A DNA stretch of 55,173 bases from Gemmatimonadales bacterium (GTDB taxonomy: Bacteria > Gemmatimonadota > Gemmatimonadetes > Gemmatimonadales > GWC2-71-9), in the NCBI GenBank assembly GCA_025937755.1, contig JAICQR010000004.1, positions 1 through 55,173 of the forward strand, given 5' to 3'. Positions 10,143 through 39,416 of the stretch are shown here, piece after piece. Numbering within the stretch: position 1 is the stretch's first letter; the number at the start of each line of letters is the position of its first letter. A model generated the notes under the pieces. That model had not been told where the DNA came from and searched no databases. It saw only the letters and a list, made by a program, of their open reading frames with translations. The position numbers were made by a program, and so were the translations under genes.

Positions 10143-10200
10143 TAGCTTCGAGCTTCTGGCTGCGAGCCTCGAGGCTTGAAGCTCGGCGCTCGAAGCTATA
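10143..10200. repeat. palindromic short repeats in the nadE/DUF442 divergent promoter region
   Basis: Units related to AGCTTCGAGC occur on the left and their complement GCTCGAAGCT on the right. The outer arms TAGCTTCGAGC and GCTCGAAGCTA pair perfectly. It fills almost the whole gap between the divergent starts at 10132 and 10209, so any promoters must lie in or next to the repeat. Confidence 0.75.
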
Positions 10201-10208
10201 TTTCACTC

Positions 10209-10670
10209 ATGTCCAAGCTTCTCGATTCGGTCAGCGCGATCCCCAACGCTCATGAGCCCGCCCCGGGCCTGATCACCAGTGGCCAGCCCAGCGAGCAGCA
10301 GCTGCGGGACTTCGCTGCCGCTGGTGGCAAGGTGGTGCTCGACATCCGCGACCCCATGGAAGTGCGCCCCTTCGATGAGCCGGCCCTGGCTCGCGAGCTG
10401 GGGCTCGAGTACATCAACGTGCCGGTCTCGGCCGGCGCCGCCAGCGAGGAAAAGCTCGACCGGATCCTGGCCGCGGTGCGCGAGCACCGGGATCAGCCCA
10501 TGCTATTCCATTGTGGCAGCGCCAACCGGGTGGGCGGCGCACTGCTGCCCTGGTTCATCCTCGACCAGAAGATGGACGCTGATGCCGCGACCGAAGCAGC
10601 GATGCAGGTGGGACTCAGGAGTCCGGAATTCCTGGCGTGGGGAATGGACTACGCAGGATCGCACGGGTAA
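10209..10670 (+). CDS. DUF442 / beta-lactamase hydrolase-like phosphatase-fold protein
   Basis: A 153-aa protein with a PTP-like fold. It shows N-terminal GLITSGQPSEQQLRDFAAAGGKVVLDIR, typical of the DUF442 family, and the active-site loop HCGSANRVGG (Cys-x4-Arg, as in many DUF442 members rather than the Cys-x5-Arg of classical tyrosine phosphatases). The substrate is unknown. ATG 10209 is used; an in-frame upstream start lies in the repeat block. A strong hairpin follows the stop. Confidence 0.82.
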   Translation: MSKLLDSVSAIPNAHEPAPGLITSGQPSEQQLRDFAAAGGKVVLDIRDPMEVRPFDEPALARELGLEYINVPVSAGAASEEKLDRILAAVREHRDQPMLFHCGSANRVGGALLPWFILDQKMDADAATEAAMQVGLRSPEFLAWGMDYAGSHG

Positions 10671-32953: not shown

Positions 32954-34095
32954 CCCCGCTGCAGCTGGCGGCCGAGTGGTGGTGGGCGGCCTGGCTCGGC
33001 CCCTGGCTGCTCTACTTCAGGCTGTTTCCCAAGCGCCCTCGGCTCGATGCAATCGCCGCCCTGCTGCAAGGCGATCGCATCAGCGTCATCGTCCCCGCGC
33101 GCAACGAAGCCGCCCGCATTGCGGCCTGCGTCGCGTCATTGCTCCGCAGCAGGTACACCCCCTTCGAAGTCATCGTGGTGGACGACCGTTCCACCGACGA
33201 TACCGCCGGCATCGTCAGTTCATTGTCATCGCGCGATGCTCGAATCCGCCTCGTCCCGGGCGAGGAGTTGCCGCCCGGCTGGTATGGCAAGCCGTGGGCC
33301 TGCCTGCAGGGGTTCCACGCAGCGACGGGCGAGACGCTGCTCTTCACCGATGCAGACACAGTGCACCAGCCAATGCTGGTACCCCACGCGGTTGCGGCGC
33401 TCGCGACCACCGGCGCCGGAATCGTCACGATCTCGCCGCATCTCAGTTGCGTGACGTTCTGGGAACGCGTAGTGATGCCGCAGGTCTGGCTGCTGCTGGG
33501 AACCCGCTACCATCCTGCTGCGGTCAATCGCGCCACCCGAGCGCGCGACGTGATCGCCAATGGTCAGTTCATCATGACGTCGCGCGAGGACTACCTGAAG
33601 GCCGGCACCCACGAGGCGGTGCGGAGCGAAGTCGCGGAGGACCTGGCGCTGGCCCAGCGCTACGCCGATGCGGGGCTGCGGATCTGGTTTGCGTTCGCCG
33701 AGAACCTGATGGAAACCCGGATGTATACCGGGCTGGCGCACCTGATCGAGGGGTGGTCCAAGAATCTGTACCTGGGCGGTCGGCGCTCCTTTCCCGGCGA
33801 GCCGGTGCTGCAGGCACTGGTGCCGGTGGCGCTCTCGCTGGCGATGGGTTTCTGGCTGGTGCCGCCGCTGATGCTCATCGCGAGCCTGGTCTTGCCCTCC
33901 CTGTTTCTGCCCGCGCTGACGGCGACATGTATCTCGGTGCTGTTCTGGGCCGGAGTCTCGCTCTCGATGCGGAACCCGCCGTGGTACGCGCTGGCGTACC
34001 CTGCCGGCGCCGCCGTGGCGCTGTGGATCGTGTTGCGATCCACCTGGCGCGGAGCTGGCCGGGTCGAGTGGAAAGGGCGGACCTACAACAGCTAG
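32950..34095 (+). CDS. family 2 glycosyltransferase (HpnB/CrtQ-like)
   Basis: A 381-aa membrane-bound GT2. An N-terminal Trp-rich helix (WWWAAWLGPWLLYF) precedes the catalytic domain: ISVIVPARNEAARI, the nucleotide-sugar site VIVVDDRSTDDT, the metal site LLFTDADT, and EVAEDLALAQRYADAG with the catalytic Asp. Two or three C-terminal helices follow (VPVALSLAMGFWLVPPLMLI). No ATG, GTG or TTG precedes the first motif in frame; the best start is CTG 32950, where CTGA overlaps the preceding stop as ATGA usually does. A lipid-linked sugar product is likely, but the acceptor is unknown. Confidence 0.82.
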   Translation: MTPLQLAAEWWWAAWLGPWLLYFRLFPKRPRLDAIAALLQGDRISVIVPARNEAARIAACVASLLRSRYTPFEVIVVDDRSTDDTAGIVSSLSSRDARIRLVPGEELPPGWYGKPWACLQGFHAATGETLLFTDADTVHQPMLVPHAVAALATTGAGIVTISPHLSCVTFWERVVMPQVWLLLGTRYHPAAVNRATRARDVIANGQFIMTSREDYLKAGTHEAVRSEVAEDLALAQRYADAGLRIWFAFAENLMETRMYTGLAHLIEGWSKNLYLGGRRSFPGEPVLQALVPVALSLAMGFWLVPPLMLIASLVLPSLFLPALTATCISVLFWAGVSLSMRNPPWYALAYPAGAAVALWIVLRSTWRGAGRVEWKGRTYNS

Positions 34096-34136
34096 TGGGA
34101 AGTGGGAAGTGGGAAGTGGGAAGTGGGAATTGGGAG
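34095..34136. repeat. 7-mer tandem repeat after the glycosyltransferase stop
   Basis: At least five copies of GTGGGAA, beginning within the TAG at 34093-34095 and degrading into GTGGGAATTGGG. There is no complementary arm nearby. Almost the same unit recurs at 45905-45940. Confidence 0.88.
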
Positions 34137-34213: not shown

Positions 34214-37200
34214 ATGTCGTCGCCCCGTCCGCTGGTACTCGCCGCAGTTCTCCGTTCCATCGAACGGCTGCCCGATCTCCCGCATCTTGCTGCGTGGCTC
34301 GGCGCCCAGCCGCTGTGGCAGCCGATCACGCCGCCACCACGCGGTTGTAATGCCGCGGCACTGATCGGACGGCTGGGCGACATACTCTGGATCGGTGTAG
34401 AAAGCGTTTCCCGGCCCGAGCGCGCCGCCTTGCGCGAGTCGCGACGGCTCGCTGCTGACGGTCACCAGGCAGCAGTCATCGGGCTGTCGCATGATGCACC
34501 GCCCGCCGGCGTGCGCCTCGCACTGGCTGTCACCGGCGGCATCAGTCCACTCACCCTCGCGGTGCACGACGCCGACCGGGTCGCGCAGGCGGCACTCGAG
34601 CGGCTGCGGCTCGCAGCCAGTGAGCCTGCGTCCACCTGGCTGGCGCGCGCTGCCGACGCGCTGGCAGGACAGGGCGCCGGCGCTGCGTTCTTTCGCTGTT
34701 TTCGTGACTCATTGACGCGATTCGAGCAGCAGATCGTCACCAGCGCCCGCGGAGAGCAGCGGCGCACGCTGGCACTGGTGCAACTCACCCGCCTGCTCTT
34801 CCTCTACTTCATCCAGAGCAAGGGTTGGCTGGATCACCGGCCGGCCTACCTGCGTGAGGAGCTGGACCGGGCGCTCAATGCCGGCCGGGGGCTGCAGCGC
34901 TGGATGTTTGCGCCCCTGTTCTTTGGCGCGCTGGCGTGTCCCGCCCCCAAGCGCACCGGCAGGGGTCGCACGCTCGGCAACCTGCCCTTCCTCAATGGCG
35001 GGCTCTTTACCCGCCACCCGCTCGAGCGCACTGCCGGATGCGGCGTGCCCGACCTCGCCTGGCGCGAAGCGATGGACCAGCTATTCGAGCGATTCCATTT
35101 CACCGTGGCCGAGGACGACGGCGGCGGTCACTCCGTTGCGCCTGACATGCTGGGCCATGTGTTCGAACGGGTGATGGCTGCCGATCGCCGCAAGGAAGCC
35201 GGTGCGTTCTACACGCCCGCGACACTGGTACGCCAGACGCTGGATGAAGGCCTGACTTCGGCGGTGGCGCAGCGGCTCGGCATCGCCTGGAGCGATGCGT
35301 CCCAGCGGCTCCGTGCTGGCGACTTCTCGGTGCGGGCGTCGCTGCGTGGGCTTCGCATACTCGATCCCGCGTGCGGATCGGGCGCATTCCTGCTGGGAGC
35401 GCTGGAACGGCTCACCGAACTGCGTGGGGGGCCCGGCGAGCAGGCACACCAGCTGCGGCGCGAAATTCTCGCCGGCCAGATTTTCGGCGTGGATCTCGAT
35501 CCCATGGCCATCAGGCTCACGGAGCTTCGACTCTGGCTGGCAGTAGCGGCAGGCGACCAACCGACAACGCCTGAAAAGGTGGAGCCGCTTCCCAATCTCG
35601 ATGCCAGTGTGCGACAGGGGGACGCGCTGCGCGAGCCGGCGGAACTCATCGCCGTGAATGCGGGAGCAGGCCGGGAGCTGCGAACGCTGAGGCAGCGGTA
35701 CGTCCGAGCCACCGGAATTACCAAGCAGGCCCTGGTGCGGCAACTGCGACGTGGCGAGCTGCTCGCAGCGGCACGCGCGCTCGAGAGCGCAATCGGGCGC
35801 CTGGAACAGCGAATCCGCGAGTTGCTGCACATTGCGCGGGCACCCAATCTCTTCGGCCAGCCGGCGCGCCTCGACCGCCAGCAGCGCGACCTGCTGGCGA
35901 TTCTCCGCCGCGAGCTGCGGGAGCTGCGCCGGGCGCGGCGCGAGTTGAAGCGCGAGGGGCGGCTGCCATGGTTCAGCGCCGCCGCGCAGTTTGCCGATGT
36001 CATGTCGGCCGGGGGCTTCGACCTGATCGCAGGCAACCCGCCATGGGTGCGGGCCGAAGCCCTGGCACCGGGAGAGCGCGAACGCTTGTCGCGGCGGTTC
36101 CGCTGGTGGCGCACCGCTGGCGGCAGAGGCTACCGGCATCAGCCGGACCTCGCTGTGGCGTTCACCGAGCGGGCGCTCGAGCTGGTGGCACCCGGAGGAA
36201 CCATCGCGCTTCTGGTGCCCGAGAAGCTCGCCACCGCGGGCTACGGGTCAGTGATGCGGGGTGGACTCACATCGGGCTGCACGCTGCGGACGGTCGCGGC
36301 AATCTCACCGGAAGGCGCGGCTGAATTTGGTGCCACGGTCTATCCGATGATGCTGGTGGCTTCGAAGCAGGTCGCCCAGCCCGACGCTCACGTGCGCCTG
36401 GGGCTTGGCGCCGATGCTGCCGCCGTGCCGCAGCGGTCGCTGGGCGCGGGCCCGTGGATACTCGGCCGAAGCGGCATGGGTCAGCTGGCGGCGAGCCTGG
36501 CTGCAACGCATCCCCGCCTGGGCGACTCGCTCCGACCATGCCTGGGCGTGAAGACCGGCGCCGACAGGGTCTTTCTCGATCCCGGCGACGTCGAGGCCGA
36601 ATTGCTCCGGCCGGCAGTGCGTGGGCGCGATGTCCGCCCGTTCCGGGCGTCGAGCCGGCACACGCTGCTGTGGACTCACGATGCTTTCGGTGAACCGCTG
36701 GCCGCGCTTCCCCCTCGGGCCCATCGTTGGATTGCGCAGCACGCCGGCCAACTGATGGCGCGCAGCGACGCACGATCCGGCGCTCCATGGACGCTGTTCC
36801 GGGTGCGCGGCGCGCTCTCACGTTGGCGTGTCATCTGGGCCGACGTCTCCCGGCGGCTTCATGCCGCTGCGCTCGTGGGCGACTCAGCCAGGCACATCCC
36901 ACTCAACACTTGTTACCTGGTTTCGATGTCCAGTGCAGCCGAGGCGAATGCGCTGACCGCCTGGCTCAATGCGCCGATCATCCGGGCTCTGGCAGCAGCG
37001 GCGGCGACGCCAGCCTCGGGAGGATATTGCCGCCACACCGCCAGCGTCGTGGAGCAACTCCCGCTGCCGGCGAGTGTCCTCGAGAGTGCAGCACTGCAAG
37101 CGCTGGCGGAGGCGGCGTCCGAGTCGGGCGAGGATGCTGAGGCACTCGACACGATTGCTGCCGAGGTGCTGGGGTTGGATCGCCGTGAGTGTCGCCGGCT

Positions 37201-37216
37201 GGCATCGCTGGGGTGA
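34214..37216 (+). CDS. Eco57I-class N6-adenine DNA methyltransferase, 1000 aa
   Basis: A large class I SAM-dependent methyltransferase. A helical N-terminal third (LLFLYFIQSKGWLD near residue 195) leads to KEAGAFYTPATLV, the SAM-binding motif I LDPACGSGAFLLGAL (about 382-396), a coiled-coil Arg-rich insert (about 500-590), and motif IV NPPW (about 607-610). The C-terminal 350 residues look like an MmeI/Eco57I-type target-recognition region. I see no PD-ExK nuclease domain at the N-terminus. It is followed 4 nt downstream by a helicase, as in helicase-methylase defence loci. The region upstream is non-coding repeat. Confidence 0.9.
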   Translation: MSSPRPLVLAAVLRSIERLPDLPHLAAWLGAQPLWQPITPPPRGCNAAALIGRLGDILWIGVESVSRPERAALRESRRLAADGHQAAVIGLSHDAPPAGVRLALAVTGGISPLTLAVHDADRVAQAALERLRLAASEPASTWLARAADALAGQGAGAAFFRCFRDSLTRFEQQIVTSARGEQRRTLALVQLTRLLFLYFIQSKGWLDHRPAYLREELDRALNAGRGLQRWMFAPLFFGALACPAPKRTGRGRTLGNLPFLNGGLFTRHPLERTAGCGVPDLAWREAMDQLFERFHFTVAEDDGGGHSVAPDMLGHVFERVMAADRRKEAGAFYTPATLVRQTLDEGLTSAVAQRLGIAWSDASQRLRAGDFSVRASLRGLRILDPACGSGAFLLGALERLTELRGGPGEQAHQLRREILAGQIFGVDLDPMAIRLTELRLWLAVAAGDQPTTPEKVEPLPNLDASVRQGDALREPAELIAVNAGAGRELRTLRQRYVRATGITKQALVRQLRRGELLAAARALESAIGRLEQRIRELLHIARAPNLFGQPARLDRQQRDLLAILRRELRELRRARRELKREGRLPWFSAAAQFADVMSAGGFDLIAGNPPWVRAEALAPGERERLSRRFRWWRTAGGRGYRHQPDLAVAFTERALELVAPGGTIALLVPEKLATAGYGSVMRGGLTSGCTLRTVAAISPEGAAEFGATVYPMMLVASKQVAQPDAHVRLGLGADAAAVPQRSLGAGPWILGRSGMGQLAASLAATHPRLGDSLRPCLGVKTGADRVFLDPGDVEAELLRPAVRGRDVRPFRASSRHTLLWTHDAFGEPLAALPPRAHRWIAQHAGQLMARSDARSGAPWTLFRVRGALSRWRVIWADVSRRLHAAALVGDSARHIPLNTCYLVSMSSAAEANALTAWLNAPIIRALAAAAATPASGGYCRHTASVVEQLPLPASVLESAALQALAEAASESGEDAEALDTIAAEVLGLDRRECRRLASLG

Positions 37217-37220
37217 GCCG

Positions 37221-38723
37221 GTGCCCCGGCTCGTCGCCGAGGCTCTCGCCGAGGTAGCGGCGCTCCCGGAACGTGTTACCGGGAGGACGTCCGCCTCGGC
37301 GCAAGACGTAGTCGGCGCGATGGCAGCGGCCGCACGTCCGCCCGAGTCAGCCATTGAGCTTCCTTCCTGGCTCCTGCCCGATCAGATCCGCTGCTGCCGC
37401 CGAGCGCTGGCGGCGATGGACCAGTACGGCGGTGCGCTGGTGGCGGAGCCCCCGGGAACGGGGAAGACATTCATCGCGCTGGCGGCCGCCCAGGCACGGT
37501 TCGGCGGGCGCGCAACCTGTCTGGTGCCGGCCGCGGTCGCCACCCAGTGGGAGCGAACCGCCTCGCGTCTCGGCGCTCACGCACGGGTCGCCACTCACGA
37601 GGCCGCCAGTCGCGGTTCCCTCCCTCCGCCGGACGGACTCATCGTCATCGACGAAAGTCATCGATTCCGCAACCAGACCACCCGACGCTACGACCACGTC
37701 GCGCGCTGGTTGCCCGGGCGTACCGCACTGCTGCTCACGGCCACGCCGGCGGTCAATCGGCTGGCCGACATCGTGCGCCAGTTGCAGCTGGTGCTGTCGG
37801 ACGACGCCCTGGCGCCATGGGGCGTGCCTTCGCTCGCGCAATTGGCGAGGGTAGAGTCGCTCCCGGAGGCGATCTGCCGGGTGGTGATGCGCTCTCCCGG
37901 GCACCAGTCTCTCCCTCGCCGCAATGAACGGCAGGAGCGGCCGTCAGCAGCTCGCTCGATGCTTCCCCTGCTTCGCGGCATCGACATGCTCGCGCTTGAC
38001 GCTGAGCCGCCGGTGGCAGGACTGGTGCGTGGCGTGCTGATCCGTGCGGCGGCGTCCAGCCCCGCAGCGCTGCTGGCGGCCCTGATCCGCTACCGCGCGC
38101 TGCTCGAATCAGCACGCGACGCCGGCGAAGCAGGACGAAGCCTGTCGCGCCTGGCGCTCCGGCGATGGGCCGGGGCTGACGGGCAGCTGGTGATGTGGCC
38201 GCTGATTCCGGACGAGGGCGAAATGGTGCGATTACCGCTCGACGACCTGCGCCAGCTCGATCGCCTCGTCGAGGCGACTCGTCGCGCCGGCACGCTCCGT
38301 GACCCCCGGGCCGAGCGCCTGGGCGTACTGCTTGGGGACGGCCGCAGGACGCTGGTGTTCACCACGGCCCGCGCGACGGTGCATTACGTAGCCCGGCGAC
38401 TGGGACGGCATCGGGTAGCGTGGTGTACCGGTGAAGACGCTGGTATCGGAATGGAGCGCTGCGACCGCGACACCGTTCTCAGCCTTTTCCGGCCGGGCCC
38501 GATACATGAGCGCGCACCCAGGGTGCTGGTCACCAGCGACGTGTCCGCGGAAGGCATCGATCTGCATGGCGCCGAACGGGTCGTGCACTACGACCTGCCC
38601 TGGACACCGGCCAGACTGGAGCAGCGCGAAGGCCGGGCCATCAGGCATGGCTCAGCGCACGAGGTGGCGGAAGTGGTGCGCTTCCTTCCGCCCCCGGTCG
38701 TGGAGCGGCGACTGGGCCAGTAA
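37221..38723 (+). CDS. SNF2/DEAH-type helicase, 500 aa
   Basis: Superfamily 2 ATPase. Walker A is EPPGTGKTFIAL (about residues 76-87), with VPAAVATQWER (motif Ia) and IVIDESHRFRN (DESH, 144-147). Motif III is LLLTATP. In the C-terminal RecA lobe, RVLVTSDVSAEGIDLHGAERV and LEQREGRAIRHG correspond to motifs V and VI. It is shorter than most SNF2 helicases and has no visible nuclease or DUF1998 domain. The start is GTG 37221, 4 nt after the methyltransferase stop, implying one operon. Confidence 0.88.
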   Translation: MPRLVAEALAEVAALPERVTGRTSASAQDVVGAMAAAARPPESAIELPSWLLPDQIRCCRRALAAMDQYGGALVAEPPGTGKTFIALAAAQARFGGRATCLVPAAVATQWERTASRLGAHARVATHEAASRGSLPPPDGLIVIDESHRFRNQTTRRYDHVARWLPGRTALLLTATPAVNRLADIVRQLQLVLSDDALAPWGVPSLAQLARVESLPEAICRVVMRSPGHQSLPRRNERQERPSAARSMLPLLRGIDMLALDAEPPVAGLVRGVLIRAAASSPAALLAALIRYRALLESARDAGEAGRSLSRLALRRWAGADGQLVMWPLIPDEGEMVRLPLDDLRQLDRLVEATRRAGTLRDPRAERLGVLLGDGRRTLVFTTARATVHYVARRLGRHRVAWCTGEDAGIGMERCDRDTVLSLFRPGPIHERAPRVLVTSDVSAEGIDLHGAERVVHYDLPWTPARLEQREGRAIRHGSAHEVAEVVRFLPPPVVERRLGQ

Positions 38724-38747
38724 CGGATACTCCACTGCAAGGCGGCG

Positions 38748-39416
38748 TTGCCGGCCCGGGCTCAGTTGCTCAACCAGGAGCTCCTGGCCTGGCCCGAGCT
38801 ATTGGAGGAGCTCGCAGAGCCGCCCGCTCGGGGGCCGCTCCTCGCGGTCGTGCGAGACGGAGGCTCGCGCGGCGTGCTCGCGGCGTTGCAGCTCGTTGGA
38901 CATGACGGCACCAGCTCGCATTCGGCCGGTGCTCGTCTGGTCTGGCTTCCAGCCATCGGTGCGCTTCGAGAGGACGTGCAGGCGCTTGCATCCGCGTTGC
39001 GACGGGCCCGCCGCCATGCCGGCATGCGGATTTCGGCGGACGGCGAGCTGCGCCGAAGCGAGCAATCGCTGCTCGCGCGCGGGCTGGCCAGGGCCAGCGT
39101 TGATTCGCTTGGCGCTGAGCTCAGCGCCGACCGCCGGGCCTCGCGGGCGCTTATCCGCAGGCTGGGGTTGCTGGCGGGAGAGGCGGCGCGCAGGCGCGAC
39201 ATCGCCGACTTCGAGCGCTGGTCCCGTGCCTCCCAGTGGCTCGCCCGTAATCGAACCACCGGCACCGAGCGGCTGGCGGCGCAGCTGGCCGCCGCATCCA
39301 CGGTCGATCTCCGGCAGCTGGCGTCGGCATTGCCTCCGCCGCCCCTACTGGTTACGTGGGAACTCCGGGCGACACACGTCATCGCCTTCCGTTCGGCAAC
39401 CGACTCGCTACGTTGA
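38748..39416 (+). CDS. unknown protein, third gene of the methyltransferase-helicase operon
   Basis: A 222-aa Ala/Arg/Leu-rich protein, mostly helical. The N-terminal part (LLAVVRDGGSRGVLAALQLVG, LVWLPAIGALREDV) looks alpha/beta, and the C-terminal part is helical with many Arg (LIRRLGLLAGEAARRRDIADFERW). No P-loop, nuclease or metal motif is seen. The start appears to be TTG 38748, 24 nt after the helicase stop. Position suggests a subunit or adaptor of the same system; the family is not recognised. Confidence 0.6.
   Translation: MPARAQLLNQELLAWPELLEELAEPPARGPLLAVVRDGGSRGVLAALQLVGHDGTSSHSAGARLVWLPAIGALREDVQALASALRRARRHAGMRISADGELRRSEQSLLARGLARASVDSLGAELSADRRASRALIRRLGLLAGEAARRRDIADFERWSRASQWLARNRTTGTERLAAQLAAASTVDLRQLASALPPPPLLVTWELRATHVIAFRSATDSLR

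What the first reader, a model, noticed from the sequence alone, without database searches (positions are those of the whole stretch)
34214..39416. Adenine methyltransferase-SNF2 helicase-unknown protein operon, candidate defence system
A 1000-aa Eco57I-class methyltransferase with target-recognition tail, a compact DESH helicase and a 222-aa protein are adjacent (4- and 24-nt gaps). The combination recalls DISARM (drmMI, drmD) and helicase-methylase systems, but there is no drmA/B/C, no BREX gene and no nuclease domain. The third protein is unrecognised and may be the effector.
Basis: partly seen in the sequence, partly recalled or inferred. Interest (0 to 1): 0.65.

Follow-up and report, generated by a model that had tools for sequence, protein, structure and literature searches.

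The report
Core methyltransferase–translocase pair, helicase stop-split
The supposed three-gene defence operon is really two genes, a DNA-adenine methyltransferase and a DNA-translocating helicase that an in-frame stop codon has cut in two, and this pair is inherited vertically by nearly every member of the bacterial order Gemmatimonadales, so it behaves more like a core-genome system than a mobile defence island.

Summary
It lies in the helicase's own frame, one TAA and eight codons downstream. In all 44 relative loci measured the helicase frame runs on for 210-349 aa past that point. The window therefore holds two genes: an Eco57I-class adenine methyltransferase and a SNF2-like helicase with a premature stop. 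No effector is hidden there, and no nuclease domain was found. The pair is not a patchy defence island. The methyltransferase is in 39/41 sampled genomes and roughly 90% of the order. The helicase is adjacent in 69/70 loci. In the 20 listed same-order genomes without the methyltransferase, the helicase orthologue is missing too. Both gene trees follow the families, and the neighbours are housekeeping genes. DISARM, BREX, Dpd and MADS2 cut-offs are missed by wide margins. Gemmatirosa kalamazoonensis keeps the methyltransferase without the helicase; its published methylome contains an asymmetric 6mA motif, ATGCAC, that probably belongs to this enzyme (by elimination). Most likely this is an ancient, nuclease-free, methylation-guided translocase system fixed in the lineage; whether it excludes foreign DNA or serves a housekeeping epigenetic role is open.

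The parts
34214..37216 (+). Eco57I-class N6-adenine DNA methyltransferase, 1000 aa, intact
   Evidence: Pfam Eco57I 67.9 bits, N6_Mtase 44.3 bits, MmeI_Mtase 35.4 bits, all above cut-off; orthologues full-length across the order
34214..34663 (+). N-terminal domain of the methyltransferase (aa 1-150): fastest-evolving part, no conserved acidic/lysine residues of a nuclease; order of strands and helices in a low-confidence model resembles a PD-(D/E)XK fold (inference)
   Evidence: conservation over 45 sequences; rates; low-confidence model
35363..35389 (+). SAM-binding motif I, DPACGSGAF (aa 384-392)
   Evidence: conserved as DPA.GSGAF in 45 sequences
36032..36046 (+). catalytic motif GNPPW (aa 607-611)
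   Evidence: conserved in 45 sequences
36371..37093 (+). target-recognition region (about aa 720-960, boundaries approximate)
   Evidence: its divergence tracks the catalytic domain, r = 0.87 over 1770 pairs; region assigned by position relative to the motifs, inference
37221..39416 (+). one ancestral SNF2-like helicase/translocase gene (731 codons if the in-frame TAA is read through), start GTG 37221
   Evidence: same frame on both sides of the TAA; relatives have a continuous frame
37449..37469 (+). Walker A motif PPGTGKT (aa 77-83)
   Evidence: G.GKt conserved
37650..37661 (+). motif II DESH (aa 144-147; DEAH in most relatives)
38721..38723 (+). premature in-frame TAA that splits the helicase; recent mutation or assembly base error
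   Evidence: absent from all other homologues measured; the downstream half is not abnormally diverged
38724..39416 (+).
   Evidence: in-frame continuation in 44 relative loci; no Pfam/PADLOC/NCBIfam family; model low confidence here

Best explanation
Shown: the locus is a two-gene core pair of Gemmatimonadales and allied families, an Eco57I-class N6-adenine methyltransferase (MTase) followed by a SNF2-like DNA translocase, vertically inherited. In this genome the translocase gene has an in-frame stop that creates the apparent third ORF. Inferred mechanism: the MTase methylates an asymmetric site throughout the genome (probably ATGCAC in Gemmatirosa). The translocase, for which no orthologue was seen in the MTase-less genomes checked, is an ATP-driven motor that acts on DNA according to that mark, impeding incoming unmethylated DNA by translocation and displacement rather than cutting, since neither protein carries a recognisable nuclease. 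If the stop is real, the motor is probably inactive or weakened in this genome, leaving an orphan-like MTase.
For: Same-frame ORFs and continuous homologues. Helicase adjacent in 69/70 loci. In 20 of 20 listed same-order genomes without the MTase the helicase orthologue is missing; 5/5 positive controls have it at 430-795 bits. Both trees recover families f1, f2, f3 and f9 as single groups. Catalytic and ATPase motifs conserved. Similarity by parts to BREX PglX/BrxX, DrdV, MmeI and CamA, and to DrmD, DpdE and RapA. No nuclease family hit. Dependency pattern: MTase can occur without the helicase (G101), helicase not seen without the MTase (0 of 20).
Against: No phage or plasmid-exclusion data exist. 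Order-wide vertical retention and a recognition region that diverges in step with the catalytic domain are unlike typical defence genes. The flanks hold no defence genes. ATGCAC is neither avoided nor enriched in about 1 Mb of order DNA. The dependency pattern could also arise if the operon is usually lost as one piece.
Confidence: 0.45

Rival explanations
1. Housekeeping epigenetic system: the MTase is a lineage-wide regulatory methylase (functional analogue of CamA or CcrM), and the SNF2-like protein helps it or remodels protein-DNA complexes at methylated sites.
For: Roughly 90% prevalence in the order and vertical descent; housekeeping neighbours; recognition region co-evolves with the catalytic core without clear swaps; MTase retained without helicase in Gemmatirosa; structural relatives include CamA, an orphan MTase present in all C. 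difficile genomes (PMC8187626); in Halobacteria conserved MTases are orphans while RM systems are patchy (PMC6471742).
Against: A dedicated SF2 translocase next to the MTase in 69/70 loci is typical of restriction-like systems; absent from at least 20 sampled genomes of the order, so not essential; no over- or under-representation of the candidate motif.
Confidence: 0.35
2. A remnant of a DISARM or BREX system that lost its other subunits once and then spread by descent.
For: Among the best NCBIfam relatives are DrmD (59-155 bits) and PglX (up to 61 bits).
Against: Scores are far below the family cut-offs (DrmD 610, PglX 400-900); no drmA/B/C or brx/pgl genes in the flanks; two genes with conserved motifs throughout the order, so not decaying.
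Confidence: 0.08
3. One reading: three-gene defence operon whose third protein is an unknown effector.
For: A 222-aa open frame exists with a possible TTG start.
Against: Same frame as the helicase, continuous in all 44 relative loci measured; no relative was found to encode it separately.
Confidence: 0.02
4. Concerning the lesion only: the TAA is a base error of this draft assembly, and the gene is intact in the organism.
For: The assembly is fragmentary (226 contigs, about 80% complete); the C-terminal half shows no excess divergence; L003 also carries an apparent frameshift.
Against: Nothing in the sequence distinguishes an error from a recent real mutation; reads are not available.
Confidence: 0.4

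Closest known systems
DISARM class with DrmMI and DrmD
   Same: adenine MTase and SNF2-like helicase as building blocks; DrmD is among the best helicase relatives
   Different: no DrmA, DrmB or DrmC; scores far below the equivalog cut-offs; core-genome inheritance
BREX PglX/BrxX
   Same: large Eco57I-class N6 MTase with C-terminal recognition region; top fold match, from a low-confidence model
   Different: no other BREX genes in the neighbourhood; 61 bits against a cut-off of 400 or more; partnered by a single SNF2-like helicase
Type IIG/IIL enzymes (MmeI, DrdV, BsaXI)
   Same: one-chain MTase with N-terminal domain, connector, catalytic core and recognition region; PADLOC REase_MTase_IIG 105 bits
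   Different: no conserved nuclease residues in the N-terminal domain; paired with a translocase
CamA of Clostridioides difficile (orphan core MTase)
   Same: one-chain adenine MTase fixed in a lineage, no restriction enzyme (PMC8187626)
   Different: CamA is about 577 aa, without the long N-terminal part, and is described as an orphan; species-wide rather than order-wide
RapA/HepA, SNF2 family translocases
   Same: best solved-structure relative of the motor by sequence, RapA 75 bits
   Different: match confined to the second motor lobe; C-terminal part not matched to RapA; linked to an MTase

Membership tests
DISARM | DrmA helicase, DrmB (DUF1998) and usually DrmC (PLD) encoded with an MTase | tested here: not met
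   ten flanking proteins give no PADLOC hit other than a generic hydrolase at 18.5 bits; definition from PMC9142583
DISARM | helicase scores as DrmD (NCBIfam cut-off 610 / 950) | tested here: not met
   82.1 bits for the window; 59-155 bits for intact relatives
BREX | MTase scores as PglX (NCBIfam cut-offs 400-900) | tested here: not met
   60.9 bits at best; 41-58 bits in relatives
BREX | BrxC/BrxL/PglZ partners | tested here: not met
   none among flanking proteins
Type IIG/IIL restriction-modification enzyme | Eco57I/MmeI-type methyltransferase core | tested here: met
   Pfam Eco57I, N6_Mtase and MmeI_Mtase above cut-off
Type IIG/IIL restriction-modification enzyme | active N-terminal nuclease (PD-(D/E)XK residues) | tested here: not met
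   no conserved acidic/lysine residues in aa 1-150 over 45 sequences; sequence-based, no assay
Core/orphan regulatory methyltransferase (CamA-like role) | lineage-wide, vertically inherited, no restriction enzyme | tested here: met
   no nuclease found next to it
Core/orphan regulatory methyltransferase (CamA-like role) | solitary (no cognate partner) | tested here: not met
   helicase adjacent in 69/70 loci
Core/orphan regulatory methyltransferase (CamA-like role) | loss changes gene expression | not testable with these tools
   needs a knockout and transcriptome
SNF2-like SF2 translocase | Walker A, DExH, SNF2-rel and Helicase_C domains | tested here: met
   Helicase_C 62.4 bits, SNF2-rel_dom 29.5 bits above cut-off; motifs conserved
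MADS / Dpd | MAD2 or DpdE equivalog score | tested here: not met
   MAD2 25.1 of 720; DpdE 76.1 of 500

The most novel reading that the evidence does not exclude
An ancient two-component methylation-and-translocation system, with a SNF2-type motor whose action depends on an adenine-methylation mark, has become part of the core genome of a whole bacterial order, working without any nuclease as a chromatin-remodeller-like or DNA-exclusion device.
Probability: 0.3. Interest if true: 0.75.

Novelty: new variant of a known kind. Interest (0 to 1): 0.5.

Why it matters
Pairs of an adenine methyltransferase with an SF2 translocase are known mostly from restriction-like, horizontally moving systems. 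A pair kept by descent across a whole order, without a nuclease, asks whether such systems can be domesticated into core epigenetic or genome-surveillance machinery. Gemmatirosa, with the methyltransferase but not the helicase and with a published methylome, and cultured Gemmatimonas strains make it directly testable. The case also shows how one stop codon can mimic an 'unknown effector gene' in defence-system mining.

Tried and rejected
Third ORF as a separate gene or effector: rejected. Membership of DISARM, BREX, MADS, Dpd: cut-offs not met. Mobile or phage origin: the viral-contig scan confirmed no relative; plasmid and phage records give only partial matches of roughly 25-30% identity among the rows shown, none covering 80% of the query. 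ATGCAC or RGATCY as a selected motif: ATGCAC shows no bias; AGATCT is under-represented, not followed up. Relaxed evolution of the part behind the stop: not seen, mean residual -2.2 points against a pairwise s.d. of 4.9. Structure models: helicase moderate (pLDDT 61), MTase poor (pLDDT 47.5), so fold matches are used only as support. Literature searches found no description of this pair (open-access library only).

Full report
What is there. The window encodes, on the + strand, a 1000-aa MTase ORF (34214-37216), a 500-aa helicase ORF (GTG 37221 to TAA 38723) and an open frame 38748-39416. Pfam gives Eco57I, N6_Mtase and MmeI_Mtase for the first, Helicase_C, ResIII and SNF2-rel_dom for the second, and nothing for the third, which also has no PADLOC or NCBIfam hit. 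The window is a whole contig (C42) of a fragmentary 2.3-Mb assembly, 226 contigs, about 80% complete; close relatives are labelled Gemmatimonadetes.

The third protein is the end of the helicase. Positions 37221 and 38748 are in the same frame; only TAA 38721-38723 and eight codons lie between. In 44 relative loci the helicase frame runs on for 210-349 aa beyond the equivalent point (L003, whose N-terminal half is frameshifted, is included by its second half). The alignment crosses the TAA without a gap, for example RRLGQ*RILHCKAALPARA against EQRLQLGAILNRKRALPARV of L003, and a lysine just after the stop (K507) is invariant in the five-row alignment. A phylum search with the 222 aa finds relatives only inside larger open frames. 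Within its family the window's C-terminal half is no more diverged than expected from its N-terminal half (mean residual -2.2 identity points, pairwise s.d. 4.9), so the stop is recent or is an assembly base error.

Distribution. The MTase is in 39 of 41 genomes (the window's own and 40 close relatives) and in all 28 of them that are at least 90% complete and at most 5% contaminated. In a draw of 395 genomes of the phylum, 278 match; by my count of that list 72 of 81 genomes of the window's own family do, and about 130 more genomes of the same order, most at E below 1e-60. Matches in families f5-f7 of the class are mostly weak and are probably other MTases. The absences include several small genomes of 1.8-2.4 Mb. 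The list of genomes without a match was cut off, so the prevalence in the order (roughly 90%) is an estimate.

Coupling. The helicase lies directly downstream on the same strand in 44 of 44 loci, in 14 of 15 further ones and in 11 more loci of families f4 and f9, where the end of the MTase precedes it: 69 of 70. The last 11 were fetched with the helicase as query, so they test adjacency only. For the 20 listed same-order genomes without the MTase, a helicase profile finds only weak, partial matches (at most 86.5 bits), while five positive controls give 430-795 bits next to the MTase. Upstream and downstream neighbours are often the same: LD-carboxypeptidase, an RsbRD_N-like protein, glycosyltransferase 2, a HAD phosphatase and a phosphate transporter. 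None of ten flanking proteins is a defence gene.

Descent. In maximum-likelihood trees of the MTase (60 rows) and the helicase (55 rows), the families f1, f2, f3 and f9 each fall on one side of a branch, the minimum possible number of label changes; support is 99-100 except for f1 in the helicase tree, 17. The recognition region tracks the catalytic domain (r = 0.87 over 1770 pairs) with no clear swaps; the lowest pairs are 11-15 points under the fit. No RM system was run as a control, so I take this only as a hint against rapid specificity change.

The exception and a motif. One genome, G101, has contigs of 5,311,527, 1,106,233, 1,040,503 and 20,952 bases, the sizes published for Gemmatirosa kalamazoonensis KBS708, whose methylome shows three 6mA motifs: RGATCY, ATGCAC and CCAGN7TCA (PMC3974934). 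It keeps the MTase but has no helicase after it nor a helicase orthologue elsewhere. Families PF07669 and PF02384 find only this MTase and an HsdM-like protein near an HsdS-like gene; PF01555, PF02086 and PF05869 find nothing. The bipartite motif fits the type I system, and ATGCAC, asymmetric like the sites of Eco57I-class one-chain enzymes (established knowledge), fits the core MTase. The enzyme for RGATCY was not found, so this is elimination, not proof. ATGCAC shows no bias in about 1 Mb of order DNA.

How it may work. No nuclease family was found in either protein, in the window or in intact relatives, and the N-terminal domain of the MTase has no conserved catalytic acids or lysine. Relatives with solved structures are MmeI, CamA, BrxX/PglX and DrdV for the MTase (the MTase model is poor, pLDDT 47.5) and RapA and SNF2 remodellers for the helicase (pLDDT 61). 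The dependency pattern (MTase can do without the helicase, helicase not seen without the MTase) is what a restriction-like pair would show, with the motor as the risky half. Order-wide vertical inheritance and housekeeping surroundings are what a domesticated epigenetic system would show. I put the first at 0.45 and the second at 0.35.

Comparison with known systems. The helicase scores 82 bits as DrmD (cut-off 610) and the MTase 61 bits as BREX-2 PglX (cut-off 400); intact relatives do not reach the cut-offs either. The pair is therefore not filed as DISARM or BREX. In Halobacteria RM systems are patchy and conserved MTases are orphans (PMC6471742); this locus combines a conserved MTase with a conserved motor, which makes it an unusual variant.

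Limits. Most loci come from unnamed, draft genomes; frameshifts and stops may be assembly errors. Distribution outside the phylum is essentially untested. No activity has been shown for either protein here.

Noticed in passing
   Followed up: partly
L003, about 10200-10310: The helicase of this Gemmatimonadetes MAG is split by an apparent frameshift in its N-terminal half, a second lesion of the same gene.
   Followed up: no
L131 (G045): Helicase matches lie in several short pieces of the same contig with the end of an MTase upstream; the pair may be decayed in this family-f4 genome.
   Followed up: no
window 34094-34133: Short tandem repeat of about 7 bp (GGGAAGT) between the glycosyltransferase gene and the MTase.
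   Followed up: no
about 1 Mb of pooled loci: AGATCT is under-represented in Gemmatimonadales DNA (observed/expected 0.72; 0.51 in family f2), while the other RGATCY forms are not.
   Followed up: no
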